DNA from: Monilinia fructicola
Lineage: Eukaryota > Ascomycota > Leotiomycetes > Helotiales > Sclerotiniaceae
DNA: 64,000 nt
Direction: 5' to 3'
Assembly (NCBI GenBank): GCA_008692225.1
Contig: VICG01000012.1
Coordinates: 1,116,001 to 1,180,000 of the forward strand
Of this stretch, positions 28,643 through 59,628 are shown in pieces; position 1 is the stretch's first letter; each line of letters starts with the position of its first letter. The notes below the pieces were generated by a model. That model did no database searches, had not been told where the DNA came from, and saw only the letters and a program-made list of their open reading frames with translations. The position numbers and the translations under genes were made by a program.

Positions 28643-30300
28643 CTACGACTCGAAAGACCATTTCTCCTCTCCTTGATCTTTCCTCGGTGATATGTTGACC
28701 ATGACTTTCCTCCCAGGTGGAGCAATCTGGACTGACATATTGCTCAGATCTTGATCTGGCTCAATCCATATCTTCTCCACCGGCAGTACATCGAACCTCA
28801 TTGCTAGCATTGCGACAAATGCTGCGACCTCAGCCATAGCGAAACCTCGGCCAGGACATAAATTCACACCCCCACCAAAACCTCGGAAAGCATGTCCAGG
28901 AACTTTACCACAAAAGCGATCTGCACGAAATGAGTCTGTAGTCTCACCCCATGTCTCTTTGTCGAAGTGTAATGCTCTATTCGCTATGATCACGACAGAG
29001 TCTTTCTTGAGCAGATACTGACCATTAACGACCATATCTTCCATAATCATGCGTGGCCCCGATCCAGTAGCTCGGAATCGTAAGGCTTCTTGCTGAGTAG
29101 AGAAGAGTAGTGGCGCATCCTTTAGCCTCCGAAGACTTATCTTGCTTTGTAAAACACCGGTCTCCGGTGATTTTTTTGTTGTGGTAATTGCTCTAACCTG
29201 CTTCTGTACTTCTTGTAGAAGATCTGGATCGGAGAATATATGGAATATTGTCCAGAAAGCTGTAGGTACCGTATTCGTCATTATAGCAATGCCATTCACA
29301 CACTCAAACCTAGCGAGATCGTCAGGACTCATCTCGGAAGAAAGAGCCAAATGTCTTGCTTTGACCAGCGATGAGCCAGTCTCTTGAGAATTGTTCGCGA
29401 AGTAATGGCTCATAGCCTCCACTACCACGGCTCTACCATCATAGGCCTTTGAAGCAATGAAACGAGGAAGAAACTTTGTTAGCAAGAGCGTGATGTTATC
29501 ATCAGCGAAGTTCCTACATTATGTTTAGCTGGATCCTGCGGGGTGAGATGTTCGAATGCCACATACCAAAACCCAGCTTCAACCTTTGGATCTCGATATG
29601 GATTCATGGGGCCATAGACACTCTCCGTCGTCGCAACTGTGATTTCATGCTGAACCCACGCCCAAAGATCTTTGCTTGAAGCTTTGTTGCCTACTTCTTT
29701 TTCCAAGTTGTCAAGACGGGCCTTGACAACATCAGCTGCAGCGCAAATCATGTCATCAACTCCACCAAGAGAAGAGATTGATTGCTGTGTAGCCTTCAAT
29801 CCATCTATCAGAAGACTAGGTTTCTCGGACGGAGGCTCCAGATTAGCAACCAGTTTCCTCGATGCATCTTTGCTTAGATCCCCAAGCTCCGCTGTAAACC
29901 GAGCCTCCAGGTACCAAAAAGAAGCTGTCCTGCCCTGTCGTTGAAGAGAGGGCATCAGCTCTGCAGAACCAACAATGTGGACTGTGCCTCCAAACATATA
30001 AATGGAAATGATTGGCGCTTTCCATTTTTGGCTATGCATTTGGAAGTGCGTTTGTCAGCACTCAAATTTGCTGTTACCAAACATTCTGTTCTCTACGAGC
30101 ATGACTCACCAAAGTCTGGTGTAGTACGCACTTCGGTGCCAAAAGAGACCTATAGCATGGCCGATGTATGGAATGATTGCTGGAACTTCTTGGGGTTCCC
30201 GAGGATCTTTGCTAATCCTGCCACGAAAAGTACTGCTTAGAATAAAATACAACACCCATATACTTGCTAGAAGTAGAAAAATCTCGAGGGTGCCCATCAT
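28643..30300 (-). CDS. Cytochrome P450 (CYP7/CYP8-like layout), three exons
   Basis: Haem monooxygenase, substrate unknown. Exons 30300-30110, 30031-29567 and 29513-28643 give 508 residues, full length for a microsomal P450. There is an N-terminal membrane anchor (IFLLLASIWVLYFIL) followed by basic residues and a short proline-containing linker (PREPQEVPAIIPYIGHA). The K-helix ExxR is in EALRFR and the haem-binding loop is FGGGVNLCPGRGFA, with Cys at about residue 438. Val-Asn replace the usual His/Arg before Leu-Cys. I-helix region: NTVPTAFWTIFHIF. Fungal proteins of this look are often labelled 7-alpha-hydroxylase-like, which says little about substrate. It shares a 939-base divergent upstream region with a second, unrelated-subfamily P450. 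Confidence 0.88.
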
Positions 30301-31239: not shown

Positions 31240-33388
31240 ATGCTCGTTCTTCCTGTTTTTGTGACGTTATTATGCCTTGTTTATATCTCCTGCTCATCCC
31301 TGCTCAGTAAAGCTTGCTTTCAGTACCTGGTGCAAGTAAGTCCTCGAAATGTGGATTGAAGCTTTTTGGTCATGAAAGTTCTCTGTGTTGACTATGTCTC
31401 TAGTGTAGGAGACTCTCCTCGGCCATACGAGAAAGGTTTCTGGCATACAGATATCTCTTCAATGGCACATCCATCATAGAAGACAAGTACAGGAAAGTAG
31501 GTTCAACCATAGTTTTATTCTCAAGATCGTTGCGCTAATAAAATCATTTCAGTCAGCTCATGAGCCATTCAAGATCATGACGCCAGAAGGGAAGATCACC
31601 ATGATTACATCTCAGCGCCACATCAGAGAATTGGATAAGGCGCCCAGACATGTGCTGTCTCTTCATGCTGTTGCAAAAAAGGTTCAATGTATAAAACCTT
31701 AGGTATTTCATTCGCTAACCCGGAAAAGTTTCTTCAGCCAAAGTATACTATGCACGGATTTGAGTGGAAAGACCAGCGGGGTATAGAAGGAACCGGTTTC
31801 GTTCGCGCCTTGCGAAGTCTCCTTACGACTCGCTTGCCGCAACTTATCCCCAGTTTAAAGGGAGGGGTACAAGATCAAGTCGCAACTGAGATAAGTAATG
31901 AAAAAGTGCTAAAAAATGGTCAGTTTGATTCAAAAGTCTCTCTCAATAGAGAGCTAATTTTGCGCAGGTTGGCGACGCGTTCCTTTATTTGCGGCTTCGA
32001 AAAGAATGATTACCCGGCTTAATTGCCTAGTTTTCTTTCCTAGAGAATTATGTTAGTGCAATACCTACCTGGTGATTTCGCTTTACCTGGCAACTAACAT
32101 AGCCGTCCGCAATACAGCTGAAGATCCTAGTTTTGTGAAAGCGGCCCTTGAGTTCCCTGAAGACGTTTATTTAGCTGCAGAAACGATACGCATCTTGCCT
32201 CGCAATATTGCACCGTACATTACATTCCATATCTTCCCCTAAGTTGACCTCGGCTAACACTGGATAGTTTTATTGCGAAACTATTGACACACAATCATCG
32301 ATCAACATCAGTCATGTATGAATACCTCTCACCACTTGTAAAACAAAGAATGGAAAATGCAGCTACAGGGTCCGGAGACTACAATGGTATACAAGCAGTA
32401 AGTCAGCCATGGCCGAAGGAGCCTTTTCGTTTCGGCTATATGCAGCGGGCTGCTACCTGCCTCTTCCCTACTTCCACTGGAAATCTGAAAGAAAAGTATC
32501 TAACTCCAGTGTCAGGATGATTGCGTACAATGGCTCATCGATACCATTCCCAAGTCCGAGGTCTGGAGTGTCGATAGACTGGTAGGTGAGATTATGGCAA
32601 TATGGTACGGATCCCTCCACACCCTGGCCATTGTAAGTTACCTCCAGCATCTCTCTCGACCCAACGAAAAGCTCTTCCACTAACCATTTATCATTAGGCC
32701 ACTACATACGCTCTCGTTGACCTGTATTCCCATCCGGAATACTTAGCTTCATTAAAGGCCGAAGTAGACGGCCCCCTATTTGCACGATTTGAAACGACGG
32801 CTACAGGTTTGCCGGAGCTTGATAGCTTCCTCAAAGAATCGGCAAGATTAAGTGCATTCGAGAGCAGTAAGCTTCATTTTGGGCACTCAAATGAATCATG
32901 GTATTGACCTTGCAATAGCTGGGATACGACGCCATGCTCTTGAAGAATTCAAGTTTTCGGATGGCTTACGCATTCCAAAAGGCACGGAGGTGAGCGTTCC
33001 ATACCGCACCATGATGCGGGACGATGAGTACTTTTACAATGCTTTGACATTTGACGGCCGACGATTCTTGAAAAATGTAACTGGGCCAGAGAGTGTCGAA
33101 AAAGATTCATCCATGCTCTCTGAGCCATCAGACTCTTGGCTAGTATGGGGCGCGGGAAGGATCTCGTGGTAAGCTGGACCCTAACTTTGCAGACAGAAGT
33201 GCTGACGAAATGGAAGTCCTGGTAGATTCTACGCTGTCGTAGTCCTGAAGCTCGTTCTCTCGCAAATCCTCACGGGCTACGAGTGTGAATTGGAAGAAAT
33301 CAAGGGGTCGAGATCGGTTCAATGGAGAACGGCTTTGATACCAAAAGCTAGCATCACTTTGAGAATGAGACCTCGAGCAAAGGATTAG
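31240..33388 (+). CDS. Cytochrome P450, ent-kaurene-oxidase-like, eleven exons
   Basis: Fungal haem monooxygenase, substrate unknown. Exons: 31240-31335, 31404-31496, 31553-31681, 31729-31918, 31968-32051, 32103-32214, 32268-32397, 32516-32632, 32698-32866, 32919-33168, 33217-33388. They total 514 codons with every phase consistent and no internal stop, so the gene appears intact despite looking broken in any single frame. N-terminal anchor: VLPVFVTLLCLVYISCS. Recognisable family segments are LFNGTSIIEDKY, LQPKYTMHGFEW, LNCLVFFPREL, ILPRNIAPFIAKLL, MAIWYGSLHTLAIATT (I-helix), ExxR in KESARLSAFES, and WGAGRISCPGRFYA with the haem Cys at about residue 457, created by the last splice. It resembles P450s of fungal diterpene and related pathways. 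The weakest junctions are the GTTCAA donor after exon 3 and the AAG acceptor of exon 11. A TIR element starts 60 bases downstream. Confidence 0.85.
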
Positions 33389-33448: not shown

Positions 33449-34229
33449 CCCTAGAGTACCAGAAATATGGCTATATGCCATATCCGGTTTATGGCATAAT
33501 TCCATATTTAAAATGGTTTTTTGATATATAACATTTGGGAATCTATAGATCTCAGGGTATATAGTATAGGAATAGGAGTTAATACTAATAGTTTATATTT
33601 TATTTTGAGTTTAGTCTATTAATCTTAGTATATTAAGCTAAACTTATTTAAGCATACTATAAGATTTCGGCCTATTTAAATGTATTGCCTTATTTGGGTA
33701 TATTCGAGTATATTACAATTTATAGTATTATCATTGTTATTGTTGTTGTTATTGTTATTATTGGTAGTATTGAAGCTATTCAGAATCTAAAGTGGTTAAT
33801 ACGTTATTAAGGGGGAGGGAGGCATTTTCGAAATAGGGGAATGGAAGCGAGGTAGAAAAAGCAATGCTTTAACGAATAGAATAACTTATTATTTATAAAA
33901 TAATAATAGTATTAATGGTATTAATGGTATTGATAGTATTGATGGTATTGATGGTATTAATGGTATTAATGGTATTGATGGTATTGATGGTATTGATGGT
34001 ATTAATAATGTCAAAGTAAAGTTGAAGAGTCGAAATGGGATTGAGAATGGTATACTAGTATTTGAAGCTATTTTGAAGCTATTTTGAAGTTAATATAATA
34101 TTCTGAAAATTTTTCAATATAGACGCTTTAAAGCTCCTACCACTATATACATAAAATATACGCTATAGTAAGATTTAGGGAGAATTCTACGAATATATGG
34201 CATCTTGCCAGAAAAGTGGTACTCTAGGG
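33449..34229. mobile_element. 781-base TIR element (MITE-like), TTC target duplication
   Basis: The left end CCCTAGAGTACCA (33449-33461) is the exact inverted complement of the right end TGGTACTCTAGGG (34217-34229). Imperfect complementarity continues inward to about 36 bases (GGC..ATGCCATAT shared). The element is flanked by TTC at 33446-33448 and 34230-34232, consistent with a 3-base target duplication of PIF/Harbinger type. The interior is AT-rich, has no transposase frame, and contains a 9-base minisatellite. Family assignment rests only on termini and duplication length. Confidence 0.7.
33911..34004. repeat. 9-base minisatellite ATTRATGGT, about ten units
   Basis: Tandem nine-base units alternating ATTAATGGT and ATTGATGGT inside the TIR element. 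The period of nine keeps one frame open, but there is no start codon or wider ORF, so I treat it as non-coding. Confidence 0.85.
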
Positions 34230-34714: not shown

Positions 34715-35113
34715 TCATTTGCAAATAGCCTGGTCATCGGCATCTGCTTGTTCTGCACGCTTCATATCCCTCTCAGGAAGTGACCAGGTATAGATGACCC
34801 GATCATCAGCATCTGTACTCTGCTCACGCTTCGTTTTCTCGCTAGACACAAGGACCATGTTTAAACACCCTGATCATCAGCATCCGCAATTTTCGCACGT
34901 TTCACTCTGAATCTAGTTTCGGGGTGTGACCAAGTATAAACAATATGGTCGTCTGCTGCGACTTTTTCGGCTCGCTTGGTGTCTTGATTTGAACCAACCA
35001 GTACGAGTCCTCTCCATGTAGTGCCAGATTATCAAATCACGAAAGTCTGTAGGAATGGCAGATCAGAAAGAGCCGATGGCCAGGAACGCAGAGAGGTGAC
35101 TCTGAAGCTGCAT
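34715..35113 (-). pseudogene. Relic of a kexin-processed, repeat-bearing RiPP precursor (dikaritin/UstA-like layout)
   Basis: On the minus strand an ATG at 35113 begins a short signal-peptide-like start (MQLQSHLSAFLAIGSF), then a stop. Further on come four evenly spaced units. Each begins with a dibasic Lys-Arg (34977-34972, 34902-34897, 34831-34826, 34762-34757), followed by 11 acidic residues of the ADADD type. The first and third end in YTWS, the second in stop-TWS (TAA at 34863-34861 in the Tyr place), and the last in Cys-Lys-stop (TGA 34717-34715). A weaker remnant precedes the first unit. There is a frameshift between units 2 and 3 and stops between the signal and repeats. Fungal precursors cut by Kex2 at KR and cyclised by UstYa-type oxidases (ustiloxin, phomopsin, asperipin) have this layout with an acidic spacer and a Tyr-containing core. 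The identity is inference; the repeat pattern is directly visible. I found no DUF3328/UstYa gene in the window. Confidence 0.65.
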
Positions 35114-35326: not shown

Positions 35327-35590
35327 TCAAAATGTCCAATTGCAAGTTACCACTCGAGTGGAGTCGAGTAGATTGAAGGAGATGAATTCGGTCAAATTGT
35401 CTACAACACTGGTGAGCTTACTCGAGGCGCCATCATTCTTGATGAGAACGTCAAGTTTTCCATACAACTCCTTGATATGACTAACGGCTGCACCAATGGA
35501 ATCGGAGTTTCTAATATCGAGTTCGACAGTAGAGATATTGGACTGGTGTGTTTCAGCCTGGGCTGTCTGCTCGGATGCCACAAATGTCAT
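35327..35590 (-). pseudogene. Fragment of a short-chain dehydrogenase/reductase
   Basis: The frame contains ELDIRNSDSIGAAV, then a YGKLDVLIKNDGAS segment, which is the middle of a classical SDR: the Asp-containing strand, then GKLDVLxNNAG with the NNAG motif altered to KNDG. There is no preceding TGxxxGIG cofactor motif and no following Ser-Tyr-Lys catalytic segment in any nearby frame. It is a gene fragment rather than a working enzyme. It lies between the RiPP relic and a broken FAD oxidase and may be part of the same decayed locus. Confidence 0.6.
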
Positions 35591-36361
35591 GAGATGAGGG
35601 GGAAAACGGGGTGATAGCTTTAGCAGGTGCGAGACCTAAGTCGCGGCTAGCACCTAGTTAATTTAAATGTAAATGTAAATGTAAATATTAGATTCGAACC
35701 TTTTATAAACTCGAGAAGACGCATCACTTGCTAGTGATTAGAACAATCTTCTCCGAGGCTGCCATACTGTGACTTGCTGTGGCTTGATGTATGCTGGTGT
35801 TTGTATTGAGAATTATGTAAGGATAAGACTTATTGGTTAATGGAGCCTTGACTGGTTGATAACCCGTCCCCTCTTCAGAAAACTGTCAGGAATTAGCGAA
35901 TATAAACTCCGAACATATCTATCCATTGTATCTGGTATGGGTCACTGTATGCGCCTTCATCATGCATCATGCATCGAGAGAGAATGCTGCGCCCCTTGTG
36001 AACATTCTCATACCCATTGGGTTTTGATCGGGGCAGGAACATCCGCCGAGCACCCTCCAGGTGATTGAGAAGAACTAGTACGCAAAGCTATAATTACTTG
36101 TACACCTATTTGTTTGTTTATTACCAATCTTTACAACCAATTTTGGGGGCGATTGCATGTTGCATTACAACAACAGGAGATTCAATACTGCAATTAGCGT
36201 TGTGGGAAATCAGCCAGCTGGTGGATCTTAAGAACTTAAGATTAAAGTTCTAAGCGTCTGTTGCCTTCCCCCAACTTTCTGGAGGGGTCATTCGATATCA
36301 CCTTTACCTTTCTATTCTCATCAGCCTTGATCGCTCCCGAACCAGTTGATAGGAACTAGCC

Positions 36362-38044
36362 ATGACATTTGCCGATTTTATTTCCACCCTCACTCGAACG
36401 CTTTCACGAGGGACGGAGATTCTTACAGATTCTTCTCAGGACAAATTCAGAATCGTCCTGAACCGTGATCGAAGATAATTGTACACATCCCAGGAGCAAT
36501 TCGGAGGCCAGCTAAGTAAGTTGATGCCGTCACCATGGTAAGTAGTTACCGCAGGAAGCTAGGAGAGCCCCAGGCATGACAGATCATAGGCCAAAACCGC
36601 CCATGAGAGGTTAATTCCTTTTGGTGCCAGCCAGTTGCGGTCATAGCCCATGGTCGACCAATAGCTCATTGGGATATTTCCTTTGCCTAGTAGGGCTCTG
36701 CAAACAGATCCTTATTGATGTTGAATCCAAATCGGTCATTGTCACTGGGGCTGTTCTAACGAAAGAACTATCTACTGCTCTGTCCGGAGCCAGTCGGTGT
36801 ACAGGCAAGATGTGGCTTTGTGAATCATTCATCAGTGATCTTATGTTCTGTTATCGATGTTGCTGGTCCTAGCAACCGGTAAGGGTGAAACGGTCGGAGT
36901 CATCCCTTTCTGCCTTGGGGGCGATACAAGTACTCTGTCTGGGATGGTTGGTTTCGGGTACGACCAAATATTAGCAGCAAAGATCATCACTGTGAATGGC
37001 ACAATTATACGCACAAGCGCAGAGGCTGAACCCGAACTCCTGTGGGTGATTATAGGACCTGGCCAACTGTTTGATGTCGTGCTAAGACTGACCATAAAGA
37101 TCTATCCATAGTCAATCTTTGGTTCCCCATCCGGCATGCATTGGGTTGGTAACTTCTTGCACCCTTTAGATCGTGCGAAAGATGTTTGTAGTGCAATGAA
37201 ACGGTTGATGATCACTACTAAATACAACACATCTGGAATTTTGATAATAATAGCGCCACCAGCGTTTCAACCAATGCTTGCTGTTGGGCCTCATTTCATG
37301 TGAGTCTCCGTTCTGTCTCAATCTTCTTCCTTCAGTCTTAAGCATATTGGACTGGCTGCGTGGGCAAAAGGATGGCTGAGCAAAATGCATGTCAACCTTC
37401 ATGACAGTCCGGAATGCGGCGGAGATCCAGCGGAAGCACCCCATGCATTCTAAACGCTCACGGATCTCAATCCAATCATGGCATCGGCATCAAAGCCGCC
37501 CCGCTACCCGAATTCGAGTGGTCACTTACTTAGACTTCGCCTGCGCAAAAGGGAATTTCCAACGGTTCGGCTTGGCAGGCTTTCCCAAATTCAGAGCCCA
37601 AAACTTTCTCAAGGTCGTCGAAAATTTAGAGTTGTTAGCTACTTGTCCTGACGCTGGTACCACGGGCTACACCTTCGAGTGGCATACTGGAACTTCCAAA
37701 TCACCACCCATCAATTCGGCATTTGCCAATGACCATATTCATTTATGGCTGTAAGAGATATTCCCAACGATATTCATCACACCAATGCTGATCCTACTCT
37801 TTTTCGTGCATAGCCATTGCTTCTCACGGTCCGACAAGGCAGAAAACCATGACATCGTGCTAGACTTTGAGAACAAAGCGATTGCAGGCATGAGAGATGG
37901 TCATCCTGAAGAGGAATGCAAACGGTAATCGCACGGAACCGATTCAAAGACGACATCGAGAAGCCGAAAGGTTACCCAAGTTGAATTAATGCATTGAAAC
38001 AGAGATGGGATCCGCAAGGTGTTTTCACCCGACGGTTGTTGTAA
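36362..38044 (+). pseudogene. Broken FAD-linked oxidase (berberine-bridge-enzyme-like)
   Basis: Pieces of a BBE/6-hydroxynicotine-oxidase-type flavoprotein occur in the right order but in different frames. They are a start MTFADFISTL (36362), then VPASCGHSPWST (normally GGHSPW), then VIVTGAVLTKELSTALSGA, then GGDTSTLSGMVGFGYDQILAA and TVNGTIIRTSAEAEPELLW. Next come MHWVGNFLHPLDRAKDVCSA, LDFACAKGNFQRFGLAGF, and at the end RWDPQGVFTRRLL-TAA at 38042-38044. Stops (such as TAA at 36474) and several frameshifts separate them, and the Gly-Gly-His flavin motif reads CGH. Introns may account for some breaks but not all. In intact relatives the flavin is often covalently bound and the enzymes oxidise secondary metabolites. 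Confidence 0.7.
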
Positions 38045-38590: not shown

Positions 38591-38775
38591 AAGGTAGGTA
38601 GGTAGGTGGGTAGGTAGGCAGGTAGGTAGGTAGGTAGGTAGGTAGGTAGGTAGGTAGGTAAGTAAGTAAGTAAGTAGGTAAGAAGGTAGATAAGTAAATA
38701 GGTAGATGAGTAAGCAAGTAGGTAAGTAAGATTAGGTAAGTAGGTAAATAGATAAATAGATACTAGGTAGGTACC
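38591..38775. repeat. GTAG/TAGG tetranucleotide tract
   Basis: A long (GTAG)n run, near perfect in its first part (38591-38660) and degenerating into AAGTAGGTA variants. It is adjacent to the AT-rich island. Confidence 0.9.
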
Positions 38776-39189
38776 TTAGATAACATAACACCTCCTCCTA
38801 AAATAATGAGTGCTCTATACTTCCTACCTCATCGTCGCGTCTTGTAATCTTGATTCATTCATACTGATATTTACCCACTAGCTTGTCTGAGAAGAGAAGC
38901 ACGCTTCTTGCAAACTTATACTCGAGCACTCTGTAATTCTGATCCTCCTCCTCATATAAGAGAAGCCGGGATAACCTGGTACATCGAATCATATGCGGGG
39001 AATATAAAGATCATCATCGGTCCAGGAAAGTCAAATCAAGCCAAGAGAGACCCTTGATCGTACTGTGCGGTAGATTGATCATCCATGATATACAGGACAG
39101 TCATACAGTAAGTACAGTAGTAAATTGCTATGGGGCCATTCTGAGTTTGTCCGAAGATTGAGTATAGGATAGTATAGTAAACGGTATTT

Positions 39190-40480
39190 ACTTATTATAC
39201 TCTAGGGTTATATACCTAGGTAATGTATATATTTTAGCTAATGAATATATATCTTTATATTATAACACTTATTAAGCGTTATAAAAATATAATATTAAAT
39301 ATATTATATATAATATATACGATTATATTATTTTCTTTTTTCATTTAATAAAATCGTTAAAATAAAAAGAAATAGAGTAGAATTTAAGAGATTTTTAAAT
39401 AAGAATAAAAATTTCTTTTTATAAAAAGATTATTCTATAGCTTTTTAATTATAAAAAGTAAATTCTATTAAATTATTTAATTTAATTTATTTATTTAATT
39501 TAATTTATTTAATTTATTTATTTAATATTCTTAATATATCTTTTAAGATTTTAATTTTAATTTATTAGTATATTATTTATTTTTTATATTTTATATTTTT
39601 ATATTTTTATATTTTTATATTTTATATTTTTTATATTTTTATATTTTTATATTTTTATATTTTTATATTTTTATATTTTTATATTTTTATATTTTTATAT
39701 CTTATATATACTATTTATAATTTACTTTATATTTTATAATACTTTTAAAAAAGTACTTTTTAATAAAATAGGATTTAAATCTTTTATATTTTATAATACT
39801 TTTAAAAAAGCAAGCACCTTTTAATAAAATAGAATTTAAATCTTTTATATATTAAAAACTTAATAAAAAGATATTTAAATTAAGTTATTAATAAATAAAA
39901 CTATAAATTTTAAAGATAGTTAATATAATTTTATATATTTAATTTATTAATAAAAATTTTATAAAAATTATTAATATAAAGATAATTTTTTTATAATTAA
40001 TACTTAGTTATATTATTAGAGATACTTTATAATTTAAAAAAATCTTAAAATACTTAATTTATTATAAATTATATTTTCTAATAAGATAAAAAATAGTTAA
40101 TACTTAATTAATATAAAAGATAATATTATTTCTTATAAAAATATAATCGTTAATATAAGTAAAGTTAAAAAGGAATTAAATTCTAAAGATATAGATTATA
40201 TAGATATTTTTTAATTATTTAATTTATAAGAATTTATTATTTTCCTTTTAGAATATTTTACGAAATAATCTTTATTTAAAATTATTCTTTCTTATTTTAA
40301 AAATACTCTTAATCTTTATTTAAATAAATTAAGAATTCCTTTTAAAATCTATTAATATATAATATATATACTTACCTTAAGCGATATTATATATTATTAT
40401 AAGCTAATCGATATACGTTATAGTATATTAATATAAATAATAACCCTATTATTACTCTCTATTCTTATAGTCCGTTGACT
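39190..40480. repeat. AT-rich block, probable RIP-degraded repeat DNA
   Basis: About 1.3 kb of almost pure A/T with few G or C. It contains a TATTTTTATA-type satellite at about 39570-39712 and a direct duplication of a 70-base unit (near 39723-39788 and 39788-39850). The parent element is unreadable. The base composition contrasts sharply with the gene blocks. Confidence 0.75.
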
Positions 40481-40516
40481 TAACGTTGTTGATATGAATG
40501 AATTCGGAAGTAGATG

Positions 40517-41518
40517 TATAAGTCGCCTACCCTACTTCTCGCCACCCCCCATTTGGCCAGCATTTCACACCAAAAACGGCCATTTTAACGTATTTATAAC
40601 TTTACAAAAAATAAATATATATTTTTTTAAATTTTAATTAGAAGCTTCTATATATAATTATTAATAAATTCTTGAAAATCTTAAATTTTTGCGAATTTTT
40701 TTATAAAAAGTAATAAAAGATTATAGAAAATTAGAATTTTCGGTTTTGGATTTGTATGGAAATTACATACAAAATTGAAAACTTTGAAAATAAATATTTA
40801 TAATTTCTTAAACAAAAATAATTAAAAATAATCTATAAATTTTTATAGAAATCTATTAATTAATATATATAGAAAATAAGCTATTTAAAATATATATAAT
40901 AATTTGAAAATTTCTATTGAAGTAAATTGAAAATTAGAAAATTTTTTACTTAAAATTTTATCGTTAAAATCTTAAGAATCTATATTAAACATTTATTATA
41001 AATAATAATATATTATTAAAATTGTTGTGTCAATATATTCGATTAAGATTGGTTTTAGGATTCTTTAATTTTTTTTAGATTATTTTTAGCTATTTTTATT
41101 AAATATAATGTGACGAGGTACGAGGAAAACAGAGGGGTTAATTGAAATAAGGTAGTTATTCTAAGGAGAAAAGGAAAGGATTTAGAATCCTTTCCTCTTA
41201 AATACTAGATTTTGATTTAGAAGGGTGTTCCTGATATAACTTTCTTAAAAGATTCTGATTTTGTATAGGATTTATATACAAATCTAAAATTAGAATTAGA
41301 ATTTTTTATAATCTTTTATTACTCTTTATAAAAAAATCGCAAAAATTTGAGATTTTTCAGAATCTTATTAATTATTATATATAGAAGCTTTAATTAAAAT
41401 TTAAAAAATATATATATTCATTTTTCGTAGAGTTATAAATATGTTAAAATGGTCGTTTTTGGTGTAAAATGCTGGCCAAATGGGGGGGGGTGGCGAGAAG
41501 TAGGGTAGGCGACTTATA
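40517..41518. mobile_element. 1.0-kb DNA element with inverted termini of about 240 bases
   Basis: The left end reads TATAAGTCGCCTACCC inward from 40517. The right end is its inverted complement finishing at 41518. Complementarity continues for roughly 240 bases (left to about 40760, right from about 41275) with mismatches that are mostly C/T or G/A, as RIP would leave. TA flanks both ends, which would fit a Tc1/mariner or pogo-type TA duplication. The interior has no transposase frame; it does contain a near-perfect hairpin around AGGAAAGGATT/AATCCTTTCCT at about 41172-41197. It is best seen as a foldback or MITE-like non-autonomous element. Confidence 0.75.
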
Positions 41519-56712: not shown

Positions 56713-59628
56713 ATGGCCCCCTCCTTCTTGAAGGATTTTAAGAGGCGTTCTAAATCCAGCGCCAAAACAACCGACTCCAGTACCGGGGAGTCTAATGCCA
56801 GTCATGTAAGCAATGGAAGTGGGCTTAGAAGCAACACATTCACCTCGACCAAATCGCAAGTTTCTTTGAATTCTTCTTATGGCGCTACAACACCGCCAGT
56901 CATATCAAATTCCCAGTCATCATCAAACCTCAACAGTGTGGGAGCAGGTCGTCCAACAGTTTTGACAACTGGATCGAATAGACAAAGTGTTTCTGGGATG
57001 TCGGGCGTAGGATCCCCTTCTTCGAAATCGGCTTTGCCCGTCTCGCCATATTCGCCCCGAATTTTGTCGATTTCTGACAACACCTGGGTAAGAGCTTTCT
57101 CGTTAGTGATTCGGCATTTGGCAGAACTAACAAATCCGGAATAGGTATATCAAAAGGTGTTATCGATATACGGCACAATATCGGATCCGTCAGAGGTGCA
57201 AATAGACGGAACGCTCACAGTCACTCGTCTAGATGATGGCTTTCCTCCGACCTGCTGGCCGGTCTCCGAGTCCCATTTCAAGGCACTTATCTACCTTACC
57301 CCGGGGCCCAATCGATTAAGATTCGACTTCACATCTCCCAAACTCGCGAACAGCAACTCTCCTAATCCCATACACTCCTCTTTCCTCACTCTTCACATGC
57401 TGCCAACTCTTACGAATCCACCACTTCAATTGGTTATACTACTCGGAAAGGATTCACCAGGAACATTCGATGCTGTGCCCTCGCGCATCGAGAGAGAAGG
57501 CAATGGCTTGGATATTGCGATACGAAAATTCCGAATGGCAGCTTATCTGTATGTATATTTTTCTTCCATATAACTTCTGCTATGCTGGCAGCAGGGTATT
57601 GAGCCATGCTTGCGAGAGTTAGCAAGACAGAATAGGTCTGGCCCCGATGATTCAGAGGGCAAAATTGTTTCTCCGAGACGTGAGACGTGGAATTTGGCCA
57701 AGTGCCATATGCTATCAAGCGTAGCCTTATCCATCTAGATGGATATGAAGATCCTTTCTATCCGAAGAGAATGAACTAACACGACTACTAGTTGGCAAGC
57801 ATTTACCGCTGAGCAGATGTATCGAAATAGGCTTGGCAGAAGGGCATTTAGATTCGAAGAAGAATGGATCACAGGCACTTCGAACTATAGAGATCATGAA
57901 CTCGGAACAATGAGAAGCGAGGCAAAGGTTCATGTTATCCGAAGCTCGAAGACTGTTGCTGAGCTTCGAGATCTTAATGTTGCCCAGCAGAACCAAAATG
58001 CTACTCGCAAAGGGGATCTTTTTTCGTTCGCCTCTGAAGATGTCAAGAATTACTTTAAGCCTCAACCAGGCCAGAAGCAGTATGTGACGGTTCTTCTCCT
58101 GGATGCTCACTGGGAGAAACAGCACAACATGATCACAGGACACGCCGCCCTTGGAGGTGGAGGCGGCGAGCTCCAACTAGCTATTTTCGGTAGCCAGGCA
58201 TTACAAAGTTATCCATCAACCATCGAAGAAGTTGTACCGGCATTTTCTGATTGCACGGTCACGGACACTAATCATGTAGCGAATGACTGTAATGAATCTG
58301 GCAGCAATTGGGAGGCTGCCAATATTGGAATAGGTGCCCACCTACATGAAGTGGGGCATCTGTTTGGATGCCCTCATCAAGAGAACGGGGTAATGCTTCG
58401 CGACTATGTTAAGTTGAATCGATCTTTTACCATCAGAGAACCTTATTCAACGCGCACAAAATCGAAGGGTGGCCTGGTTTTGCCAAGAGATGAATGCACT
58501 TGGCATAGATTGGACACTTTGCGTTTTAGAAGCCACCCATCGTTCGCACTTCCCACTGACCCTCCACGAGTTAGCGATGAATCAATCCAAGTATGGCCTG
58601 TAGATAATGGTAGTGTGATTGTTACGGCCGCATCAGGGGTGGCGTTTCTCGAAATCTTTACAGACGGCGACGATCTTTGCCATCACTGGCAAGAGTTCGG
58701 AGACGGGAATGGCAACGGGCCCATTCAACGACAGATCACCCTGACAGAGCAAGATTTAAGGAGTCAGCTACCCGAGGACCGCCGAAAGTCGAAACTGAAG
58801 CTATCTGTGAAGTCATTCGGTGGTGGCAGCCATGAGGTTGATGATTTTGCTCGCTTGGTTTCCAAATCGAGCAAACTGAAGCTGAAGAATGGACAGCTGG
58901 CGTTCAGAAGCAGCAAACTGGGTGCATCACAGATGGATGGCTCCCAGCCGCAGGAAGTCATATTTGATAGCACAATTTATCAAACAAAATTGATGATACA
59001 AGTGAGGGTGTAAGTAGAGAAGTTGCCTGAAGACAACTGAAGAGACTCTATGGGGGTCGCTATTCTCCGTATCCCCAAGATAGCTTACCCGAGTGCGAAT
59101 GCTGACTTGTCTCCTATCTAGCTGGGCTGGTTTCGCGCTGGACGGTATAGAGTTTATTTACGAGGATGCGACCTCACAACTTTTTGGCAAGAGAGGTGGA
59201 TCATCGTCGGATTTTAGCCTTGGTTTGTATCATGCTTCTCAAAATCTCATCTCAATCACTCATCGTTTTCGTAGACACACGTCGAGGAGAGTATATTACT
59301 GGGTTCTACGTTAGAAGTGGGTTATGGCTGGATGGGATTGCAATTATGACTAGTTTAGGGAGGAAGTCCCAGGTTTTTGGAAACCCTGTTGGCGGTTCTG
59401 GGTTAGTATTCATCCACCCTCTCCTGATTGTTATGATGGTGTATCATCTGTGTTGCAACCTTTTGGGGGTTCATTTTATATTTATGGCTACCATTGGGCT
59501 ACCATCATGCACATTTACTGACACTCTGCAGGCATACTTTGATACCCCCAAGAGGATACACAATTGCAGGCGTTTCAGGATCATGTGCAGCGTGGATTGA
59601 TGGCTTTGGTATTATTCTTACTCGGTGA
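56713..59628 (+). CDS. Putative zinc metallopeptidase (Metallopep family) with C-terminal jacalin-like domain, six exons
   Basis: Homologue of the uncharacterised S. cerevisiae YIL108W. Exons 56713-57087, 57145-57548, 57792-59009, 59122-59222, 59275-59401 and 59532-59628 give 773 residues with all phases consistent. Residues 1-125 are Ser-rich and disordered (MAPSFLKDFKRRSK). The peptidase region includes LTPGPNRLRFDF, LLLDAHWEKQHNMITGHAALG and the zinc motif HEVGH at about 445-449, followed by FGCPHQENGVM. That gives two zinc His and the catalytic Glu. The final three exons encode a jacalin-like lectin fold (RRGEYITGFYVRSGLWLDGI and GVSGSCAAWIDGFGIIL). There is no signal peptide, so it is probably cytosolic. 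Intron 2 is 243 bases, long compared with its neighbours, and contains only shadow ORFs. Substrate unknown. Confidence 0.88.

What the first reader, a model, noticed from the sequence alone, without database searches (positions are those of the whole stretch)
34715..35113. Relic of a previously unseen kexin-type RiPP precursor with KR-x11-YTWS repeats
Seen: four Lys-Arg sites on the minus strand, each followed by exactly 11 residues containing ADDH, ADADD or DADD and then YTWS (units 1 and 3), stop-TWS (unit 2) or a diverged end (unit 4), behind a signal-peptide-like start. Known: ustiloxin, phomopsin and asperipin precursors have the same layout of signal peptide, KR sites, acidic spacer and short Tyr-containing core. 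I know of no described core ending YTWS. Inference: this locus once made a dikaritin-like cyclic peptide and has decayed through a nonsense change at 34861-34863, a frameshift and upstream stops. Intact orthologues in related species would be a new RiPP family.
Basis: partly seen in the sequence, partly recalled or inferred. Interest (0 to 1): 0.88.

Follow-up and report, generated by a model that had tools for sequence, protein, structure and literature searches.

The report
Dead fungal repeat-peptide precursor gene
This looks like the decayed remains of a fungal gene that once encoded a protein cut at Lys-Arg sites into several similar small peptides, a common and very variable kind of fungal gene, and nothing found nearby shows that the peptides were ever made into a cyclic natural product.

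Summary
Four Lys-Arg (KR) units lie on the minus strand at 34715-34977; each KR is followed by exactly 11 residues and then YTWS (units 1, 3), a stop then TWS (unit 2) or a diverged end (unit 4). It is not chance: each half finds only itself and the other half in the 44-Mb genome (E 6e-8 and 3.8e-8), and differences between units pile up at third codon positions. So the repeats were once translated. Now stops and frame changes break them, and no intron model tested opens the frame. Best reading: a pseudogene of a KEX2-processed repeat protein (KEP), probably in a helotialean fungus. The RiPP/dikaritin claim is not supported: none of 31 UstYa matches lies in the window (nearest about 424 kb away), none of 13 tyrosinase matches is on this contig, units are 21-23 residues and do not end at YTWS, and the 'signal peptide' is no better than 130 of 1232 ATGs. 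The nearest published KEP core is YVW[G/A][G/S], a resemblance only. No homologue was found, which is not unusual: 2560 of 7878 surveyed KEPs stand alone.

The parts
35066..35113 (-). ATG plus 16-codon hydrophobic stretch, possible remains of a signal peptide (weak)
   Evidence: same frame as units 3-4; hydrophobicity matched by 130 of 1232 ATGs
35063..35065 (-). nonsense codon ending the ATG frame
34903..34977 (-). unit 1: KR, 11 residues, YTWS, 8 more residues
34832..34902 (-). unit 2: KR, 11 residues, stop, TWS; the frame changes before unit 3
   Evidence: 71 nt to the next KR, not a multiple of 3
34861..34863 (-). nonsense codon inside unit 2
34763..34831 (-). unit 3: KR, 11 residues, YTWS, 6 more residues
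34715..34762 (-). unit 4: KR, 11 residues, diverged end and terminal stop
35330..35635 (-). neighbouring fragment of a short-chain dehydrogenase, probably a relic, upstream of the repeats
   Evidence: adh_short E 4.2e-7 over profile positions 42-93 of 195; only itself at E <= 0.01; other pieces of the gene were not found but not sought exhaustively
36839..37108 (+). neighbouring FAD-linked oxidase fragment, possibly a relic
   Evidence: FAD_binding_4 E 0.013, below cut-off; 15 other places in the genome, best 39% identity, E 1.2e-9
32852..33169 (+). neighbouring cytochrome P450 exon; whether the gene is intact is not settled
   Evidence: p450 E 1.7e-9

Best explanation
The interval is a pseudogene of a KEX2-processed repeat protein (KEP). 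Inferred working state: the precursor entered the secretory pathway, the kexin protease cut after each Lys-Arg, and 21-23-residue peptides were released. Each had an Ala/Asp-rich amino-terminal spacer (about A-x-x-A-D-A-D-D), probably trimmed or used for recognition, and a carboxy-terminal aromatic part around [VI]-Y-T-W-S-[LH]-P. Shown: the repeats, their coding signature in this frame, and that the frame is broken in this assembly. Inferred: secretion, cleavage and trimming. Unknown: what the peptide did and whether it was modified; with no cyclisation gene found nearby, a linear secreted peptide is the simpler guess.
For: Similarity between the two halves at E 6e-8 and 3.8e-8 in whole-genome searches. 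Pairwise differences by codon position 9/13/34 over units 1-3, 17 codons; 2 of 100000 column shuffles reach the third-position count. Synonymous share of differing codon pairs 22 of 55 in this frame against 1 of 53 and 9 of 58 in the other two minus-strand frames. KR-x11-(Y or stop)-T-W occurs three times in the window, all three here. A kexin-type P domain is in the genome, on C2. No intron model tested opens the frame from the ATG to the last stop. A probable relic, a dehydrogenase fragment, lies beside it. The repeat part of the KEP definition in PMC7329392 (at least 3 tandem repeats of at least 8 residues between Kex2 sites) is met in layout.
Against: The published KEP definition also needs a signal peptide, which is not shown here. 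The plus-strand reading at offset 2 also has a fair synonymous share (20 of 58), although the repeat similarity and KR sites belong to the minus strand. Units 1 and 4 are only weakly alike at the DNA level (12 of 500 shuffles reach the score). No homologue supports any step.
Confidence: 0.75

Rival explanations
1. It was the precursor of a cyclised RiPP (dikaritin-like), whose UstYa genes have been lost or lie elsewhere.
For: KR sites, acid-rich spacer and a repeated Tyr recall ustiloxin-type precursors; 65.6% of repeated sequences in DUF3328-linked KEPs hold Tyr against 38.2% in the rest, and 30.1% of ascomycete KEPs have such a neighbour. The genome has 31 UstYa matches at about 17 places. 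A P450 exon, an oxidase fragment and a dehydrogenase fragment lie within about 2 kb.
Against: No UstYa match in the window, nearest about 424 kb off; no tyrosinase match on this contig; unit length 21-23 against typically 13, 14 and 8; YTWS is not followed directly by KR.
Confidence: 0.15
2. It is a decayed alpha-type mating pheromone precursor.
For: Same precursor layout; Ala-containing dipeptides after KR recall the Ste13 signature.
Against: Leotiomycete pheromones are described with two conserved cysteines, and units 1 and 3 have none; the dipeptides are not in strict X-Ala register. A recalled pheromone motif was not found anywhere in the genome, so a separate pheromone gene was not shown.
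Confidence: 0.04
3. The gene is alive and the stops and frame changes are assembly errors.
For: Reads cannot be inspected here; differences between units still favour third positions, so any decay is not old (inference).
Against: Several independent breaks within about 250 nt, a last unit that has lost its core, and a probable relic beside it.
Confidence: 0.05
4. Chance resemblance in non-coding DNA.
For: Acid- and alanine-rich low-complexity codons could inflate similarity.
Against: Whole-genome E of 6e-8 and 3.8e-8, the third-position excess and the spacing.
Confidence: 0.01

Closest known systems
[quoted passage not shown]
   Same: Tandem repeats of more than 8 residues between KR sites; often without homologues; most without a DUF3328/UstYa neighbour (PMC7329392)
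   Different: This copy is broken and its signal peptide is not established
Pezizomycotina KEPs with core YVW[G/A][G/S] (among motifs 3 to 6 of PMC6339444)
   Same: Tyr, one residue, Trp, repeated between Kex2 sites
   Different: YTWS followed by L or H differs at positions 2, 4 and 5 of the five; the full sequences are in supplements that I could not read
Dikaritin precursors (ustiloxin, phomopsin, asperipin)
   Same: Kex2 sites, acidic residues before a Tyr-containing segment
   Different: Units of 21-23 residues, no EDYxI core, residues between YTWS and the next KR, no UstYa or tyrosinase match nearby
Alpha-type pheromone precursors with Ste13 dipeptides
   Same: KR followed by Ala-containing dipeptides before the rest of the unit
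   Different: No cysteines in units 1 and 3; dipeptides out of register

Membership tests
KEX2-processed repeat protein (KEP) | at least 3 tandem repeats of 8 or more residues between dibasic Kex2 sites | tested here: met
   (in two frames, as a relic)
KEX2-processed repeat protein (KEP) | signal peptide | tested here: inconclusive
   hydrophobic start matched by 130 of 1232 ATGs; stop after 16 codons; no SignalP on hand
KEX2-processed repeat protein (KEP) | open reading frame that makes the precursor | tested here: not met
   hence filed as a pseudogene of the family, not a working member
Dikaritin / ustiloxin-type RiPP precursor | UstYa (DUF3328) gene nearby | tested here: not met
   31 matches in the genome at E <= 0.01, none in the 64-kb window; exon-by-exon search with a lower-bound count, so a badly decayed copy could be missed
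Dikaritin / ustiloxin-type RiPP precursor | tyrosinase in the cluster (ustiloxin, phomopsin) | tested here: not met
   13 matches, none on contig C12
Dikaritin / ustiloxin-type RiPP precursor | EDYxI core (ustiloxins, phomopsins) | tested here: not met
Dikaritin / ustiloxin-type RiPP precursor | cyclic modified product | not testable with these tools
   needs mass spectrometry on a species with an intact gene
KEP with core YVW[G/A][G/S] | core fits YVW[G/A][G/S] | tested here: not met
   core reads YTWSH or YTWSL; motif; resemblance only
Alpha-type pheromone precursor | X-Ala/X-Pro dipeptides directly after KR | tested here: inconclusive
   dipeptides AE-KV-AA-DD, AK-IA-DA-DD, EQ-ST-DA-DD, AE-QA-DA-DD
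Alpha-type pheromone precursor | two conserved cysteines, as described for Leotiomycetes | tested here: not met
   no Cys in units 1 and 3; description

The most novel reading that the evidence does not exclude
A lost peptide family of helotialean fungi with a Y-T-W-S core in long 21-23-residue Kex2 units, modified by enzymes other than UstYa (for example the neighbouring P450 or the oxidase), surviving intact in relatives not held in the database searched.
Probability: 0.1. Interest if true: 0.55.

Novelty: new member of a known kind. Interest (0 to 1): 0.28.

Why it matters
It suggests that KEP genes die and can be recognised as relics by a third-codon-position signature between their repeats even without any homologue, which could be used to ask how fast fungi gain and lose such peptides. 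If intact relatives with a modified YTWS peptide existed, a Tyr/Trp-bearing core with a new tailoring enzyme would interest natural-product chemists; nothing found here shows that.

Tried and rejected
Chance repeats: rejected. High-copy element: a 601-base stretch over the locus matches only itself in the genome (the tool skips very common words). Rescue by introns: 28 GT-YAG candidates of 40-160 nt with a fair donor and a branch-like site were tried singly and in pairs; none opens the frame from the ATG at 35113 (weaker donors and other starts were not tried). A fifth diverged unit upstream or downstream: not supported, at best 61 and 90 of 500 shuffles reach the score. RIP as the cause of decay: dinucleotide ratios at the relic (0.59, 1.47) are like those of two gene stretches in the window (0.62, 1.29 and 0.54, 1.54) and unlike the AT-rich block (1.09, 0.53) (how such ratios are read is recalled).

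Other repeat precursors near UstYa genes: 55 sequences, 334,840 bases, partly overlapping, were loaded; five loci that repeat the relic were skipped. Of 4098 stop-to-stop frames, 75 had two or more scorable KR segments, and the 30 best were printed: the top two are KR-rich low complexity and the rest score at most 16, against 44 for units 1 and 3 of the relic. Limits: the scan needs two 14-residue segments in one frame, so it does not recover the relic itself, and only 7 of about 17 UstYa places were covered to about 10 kb, the rest to 1.5 kb.

Other YTWS clusters in the genome: a YTWS DNA pattern with TCN serine codons has 108 places (161 for the reversed control pattern, so no enrichment); among the 100 listed the only pairs closer than 300 nt are this locus and a doublet on C8. 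The YVW[GA] pattern has 197 places (355 for the control); the 100 listed, all on C1-C6, hold no pair closer than 300 nt.

Homologues: one search found no candidate sharing three words; one search found 1 candidate, not significant at E <= 1. A control protein from the window found 1116 relatives (best 120 listed), named fungi among them, so the database does hold fungal proteins; short fast-evolving precursors may still be missed.

Literature: YTWS with 'fung' gave 7 papers; I opened one passage, a yeast killer-toxin loop, and judged the other six by title and abstract start. Other searches. KEP sequence tables are in supplements that could not be read, so YTWS may be listed there.

Full report
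Setting. The window is G000:C12:1116001-1180000 in a 44.0-Mb, 20-contig genome. A window metallopeptidase exon (57775-59010) is 81% identical to Lachnellula suecica and 80% to Botrytis cinerea over 99% of its length, and 91% to Botryotinia narcissicola over 67%, so the source is most likely a helotialean (Leotiomycetes) fungus; the species is not known. Among the 30 open frames scanned against Pfam, HAUS1, TPR, SPIN90, BAR/PH, Whi5, TPP-enzyme, metallopeptidase, 3-beta-HSD-like, fungal-rhodopsin and P450 domains were found: an ordinary neighbourhood. The finding lies near an AT-rich block (39001-41000, 14-16% GC).

The repeats. KR starts are 34977, 34902, 34831 and 34762 on the minus strand. 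The 11-residue spacing to YTWS, or to its place, is exact in all four. The segment does not end there: units 1 and 3 run on for 8 and 6 residues to the next KR, so the peptides between KR sites are 23 and 21 residues long. The ATG at 35113 is in frame with units 3-4 and out of frame with units 1-2.

More than chance. Whole-genome searches with either half find only the half itself and its partner (53% identity, E 6e-8; 56%, E 3.8e-8). KR-x11-xTW is expected 0.325 times in 64 kb; 4 were seen, 3 of them here. Differences between units fall 9, 13 and 34 at codon positions 1, 2 and 3 over units 1-3 (17 codons), with 2 of 100000 column shuffles as extreme at the third position, and 18, 22 and 47 over four units (13 codons), with 54 of 100000. 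The pairs of units are not independent, but the excess is what selection on the encoded peptide leaves. Against: units 1 and 4 are weakly alike as DNA (12 of 500 shuffles reach the score), and one plus-strand reading also shows a fair synonymous share (20 of 58).

Broken. A nonsense codon stands inside unit 2 (34861-34863) and the frame changes between units 2 and 3; if the ATG at 35113 was the start, there is also a nonsense codon at 35063-35065 and a second frame change. The 28 candidate introns tried, alone or paired, do not open the frame. A dehydrogenase fragment, probably a relic, lies upstream (profile positions 42-93 of 195), and an oxidase fragment beyond it; of seven pieces of the latter only one matched paralogues convincingly, so its decay is not shown. 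Dinucleotide ratios at the relic do not point to RIP.

What it was. By the definition in PMC7329392 (section 13) a secreted protein with at least three repeats of at least 8 residues between Kex2 sites is a KEP. The hydrophobic start here is too common to count (130 of 1232 ATGs), so membership rests on the repeats. KEPs average 5.25 per ascomycete strain, 2560 of 7878 have no homologue, and 22% have a DUF3328 neighbour (abstract; 30.1% in Ascomycota). A KEP with no relative and no UstYa is therefore unremarkable.

Not shown to be a RiPP. The genome has 31 UstYa matches at about 17 places; none is in the window and the nearest is about 424 kb off on the same contig. None of 13 tyrosinase matches is on this contig. 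Both counts are lower bounds. Ustiloxin, phomopsin and asperipin repeats are typically 13, 14 and 8 residues (section 9 of PMC7329392), and the first two carry EDYxI (PMC6339444). The Trp content of KEP repeats is similar with and without DUF3328 neighbours (20.5% and 24.5%), while Tyr differs (65.6% and 38.2%), so the Tyr is a mild hint for cyclisation and the Trp none. A P450 exon, an oxidase fragment and a dehydrogenase fragment nearby leave modification by other enzymes open, without evidence.

Relatives. Two protein searches with separate pieces found nothing in a database that does hold fungal proteins. The nearest described motif is YVW[G/A][G/S], one of the conserved Pezizomycotina KEP cores of PMC6339444 (section 10). 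YTWS followed by H or L differs from it at three of five positions; I call it a resemblance. A YTWS DNA pattern with TCN serine codons has 108 places in the genome; of the 100 listed, the only pairs closer than 300 nt are this locus and a doublet on C8.

Papers: PMC7329392, abstract and outline, sections 3, 7, 9 and 13, part 1 of 2 of section 6, and passages. PMC6339444, passages and sections 10 and 17. PMC6514808, passages. PMC13211469, one passage. Others by search listing only.

Noticed in passing
35330-35635 (-): Fragment of a short-chain dehydrogenase (adh_short, E 4.2e-7, profile 42-93 of 195) directly upstream of the repeats, probably a relic; only itself at E <= 0.01 in the genome.
   Followed up: partly
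36839-37108 (+): FAD-linked oxidase fragment followed by a stop at 37109-37111; 15 other places in the genome match it, best 39% identity.
   Followed up: partly
32698-33169 (+) and 28646-29518 (-): Cytochrome P450 pieces of two divergently oriented genes, the first about 1.5 kb from the relic; by eye its heme-motif region seems to be split by an intron after 33169.
   Followed up: partly
39001-41000: Very AT-rich block (14-16% GC) with dinucleotide ratios of 1.09 and 0.53 over 39500-41000, as after RIP (reading of the ratios recalled).
   Followed up: no
33904-34007 and 38592-38746: Tandem arrays of 9/36-bp and AGGT units on either side of the relic and its neighbouring fragments.
   Followed up: no
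G000:C8:259065-259095 (-): Two copies of a YTWS-coding 11-mer 20 nt apart; not read further.
   Followed up: no
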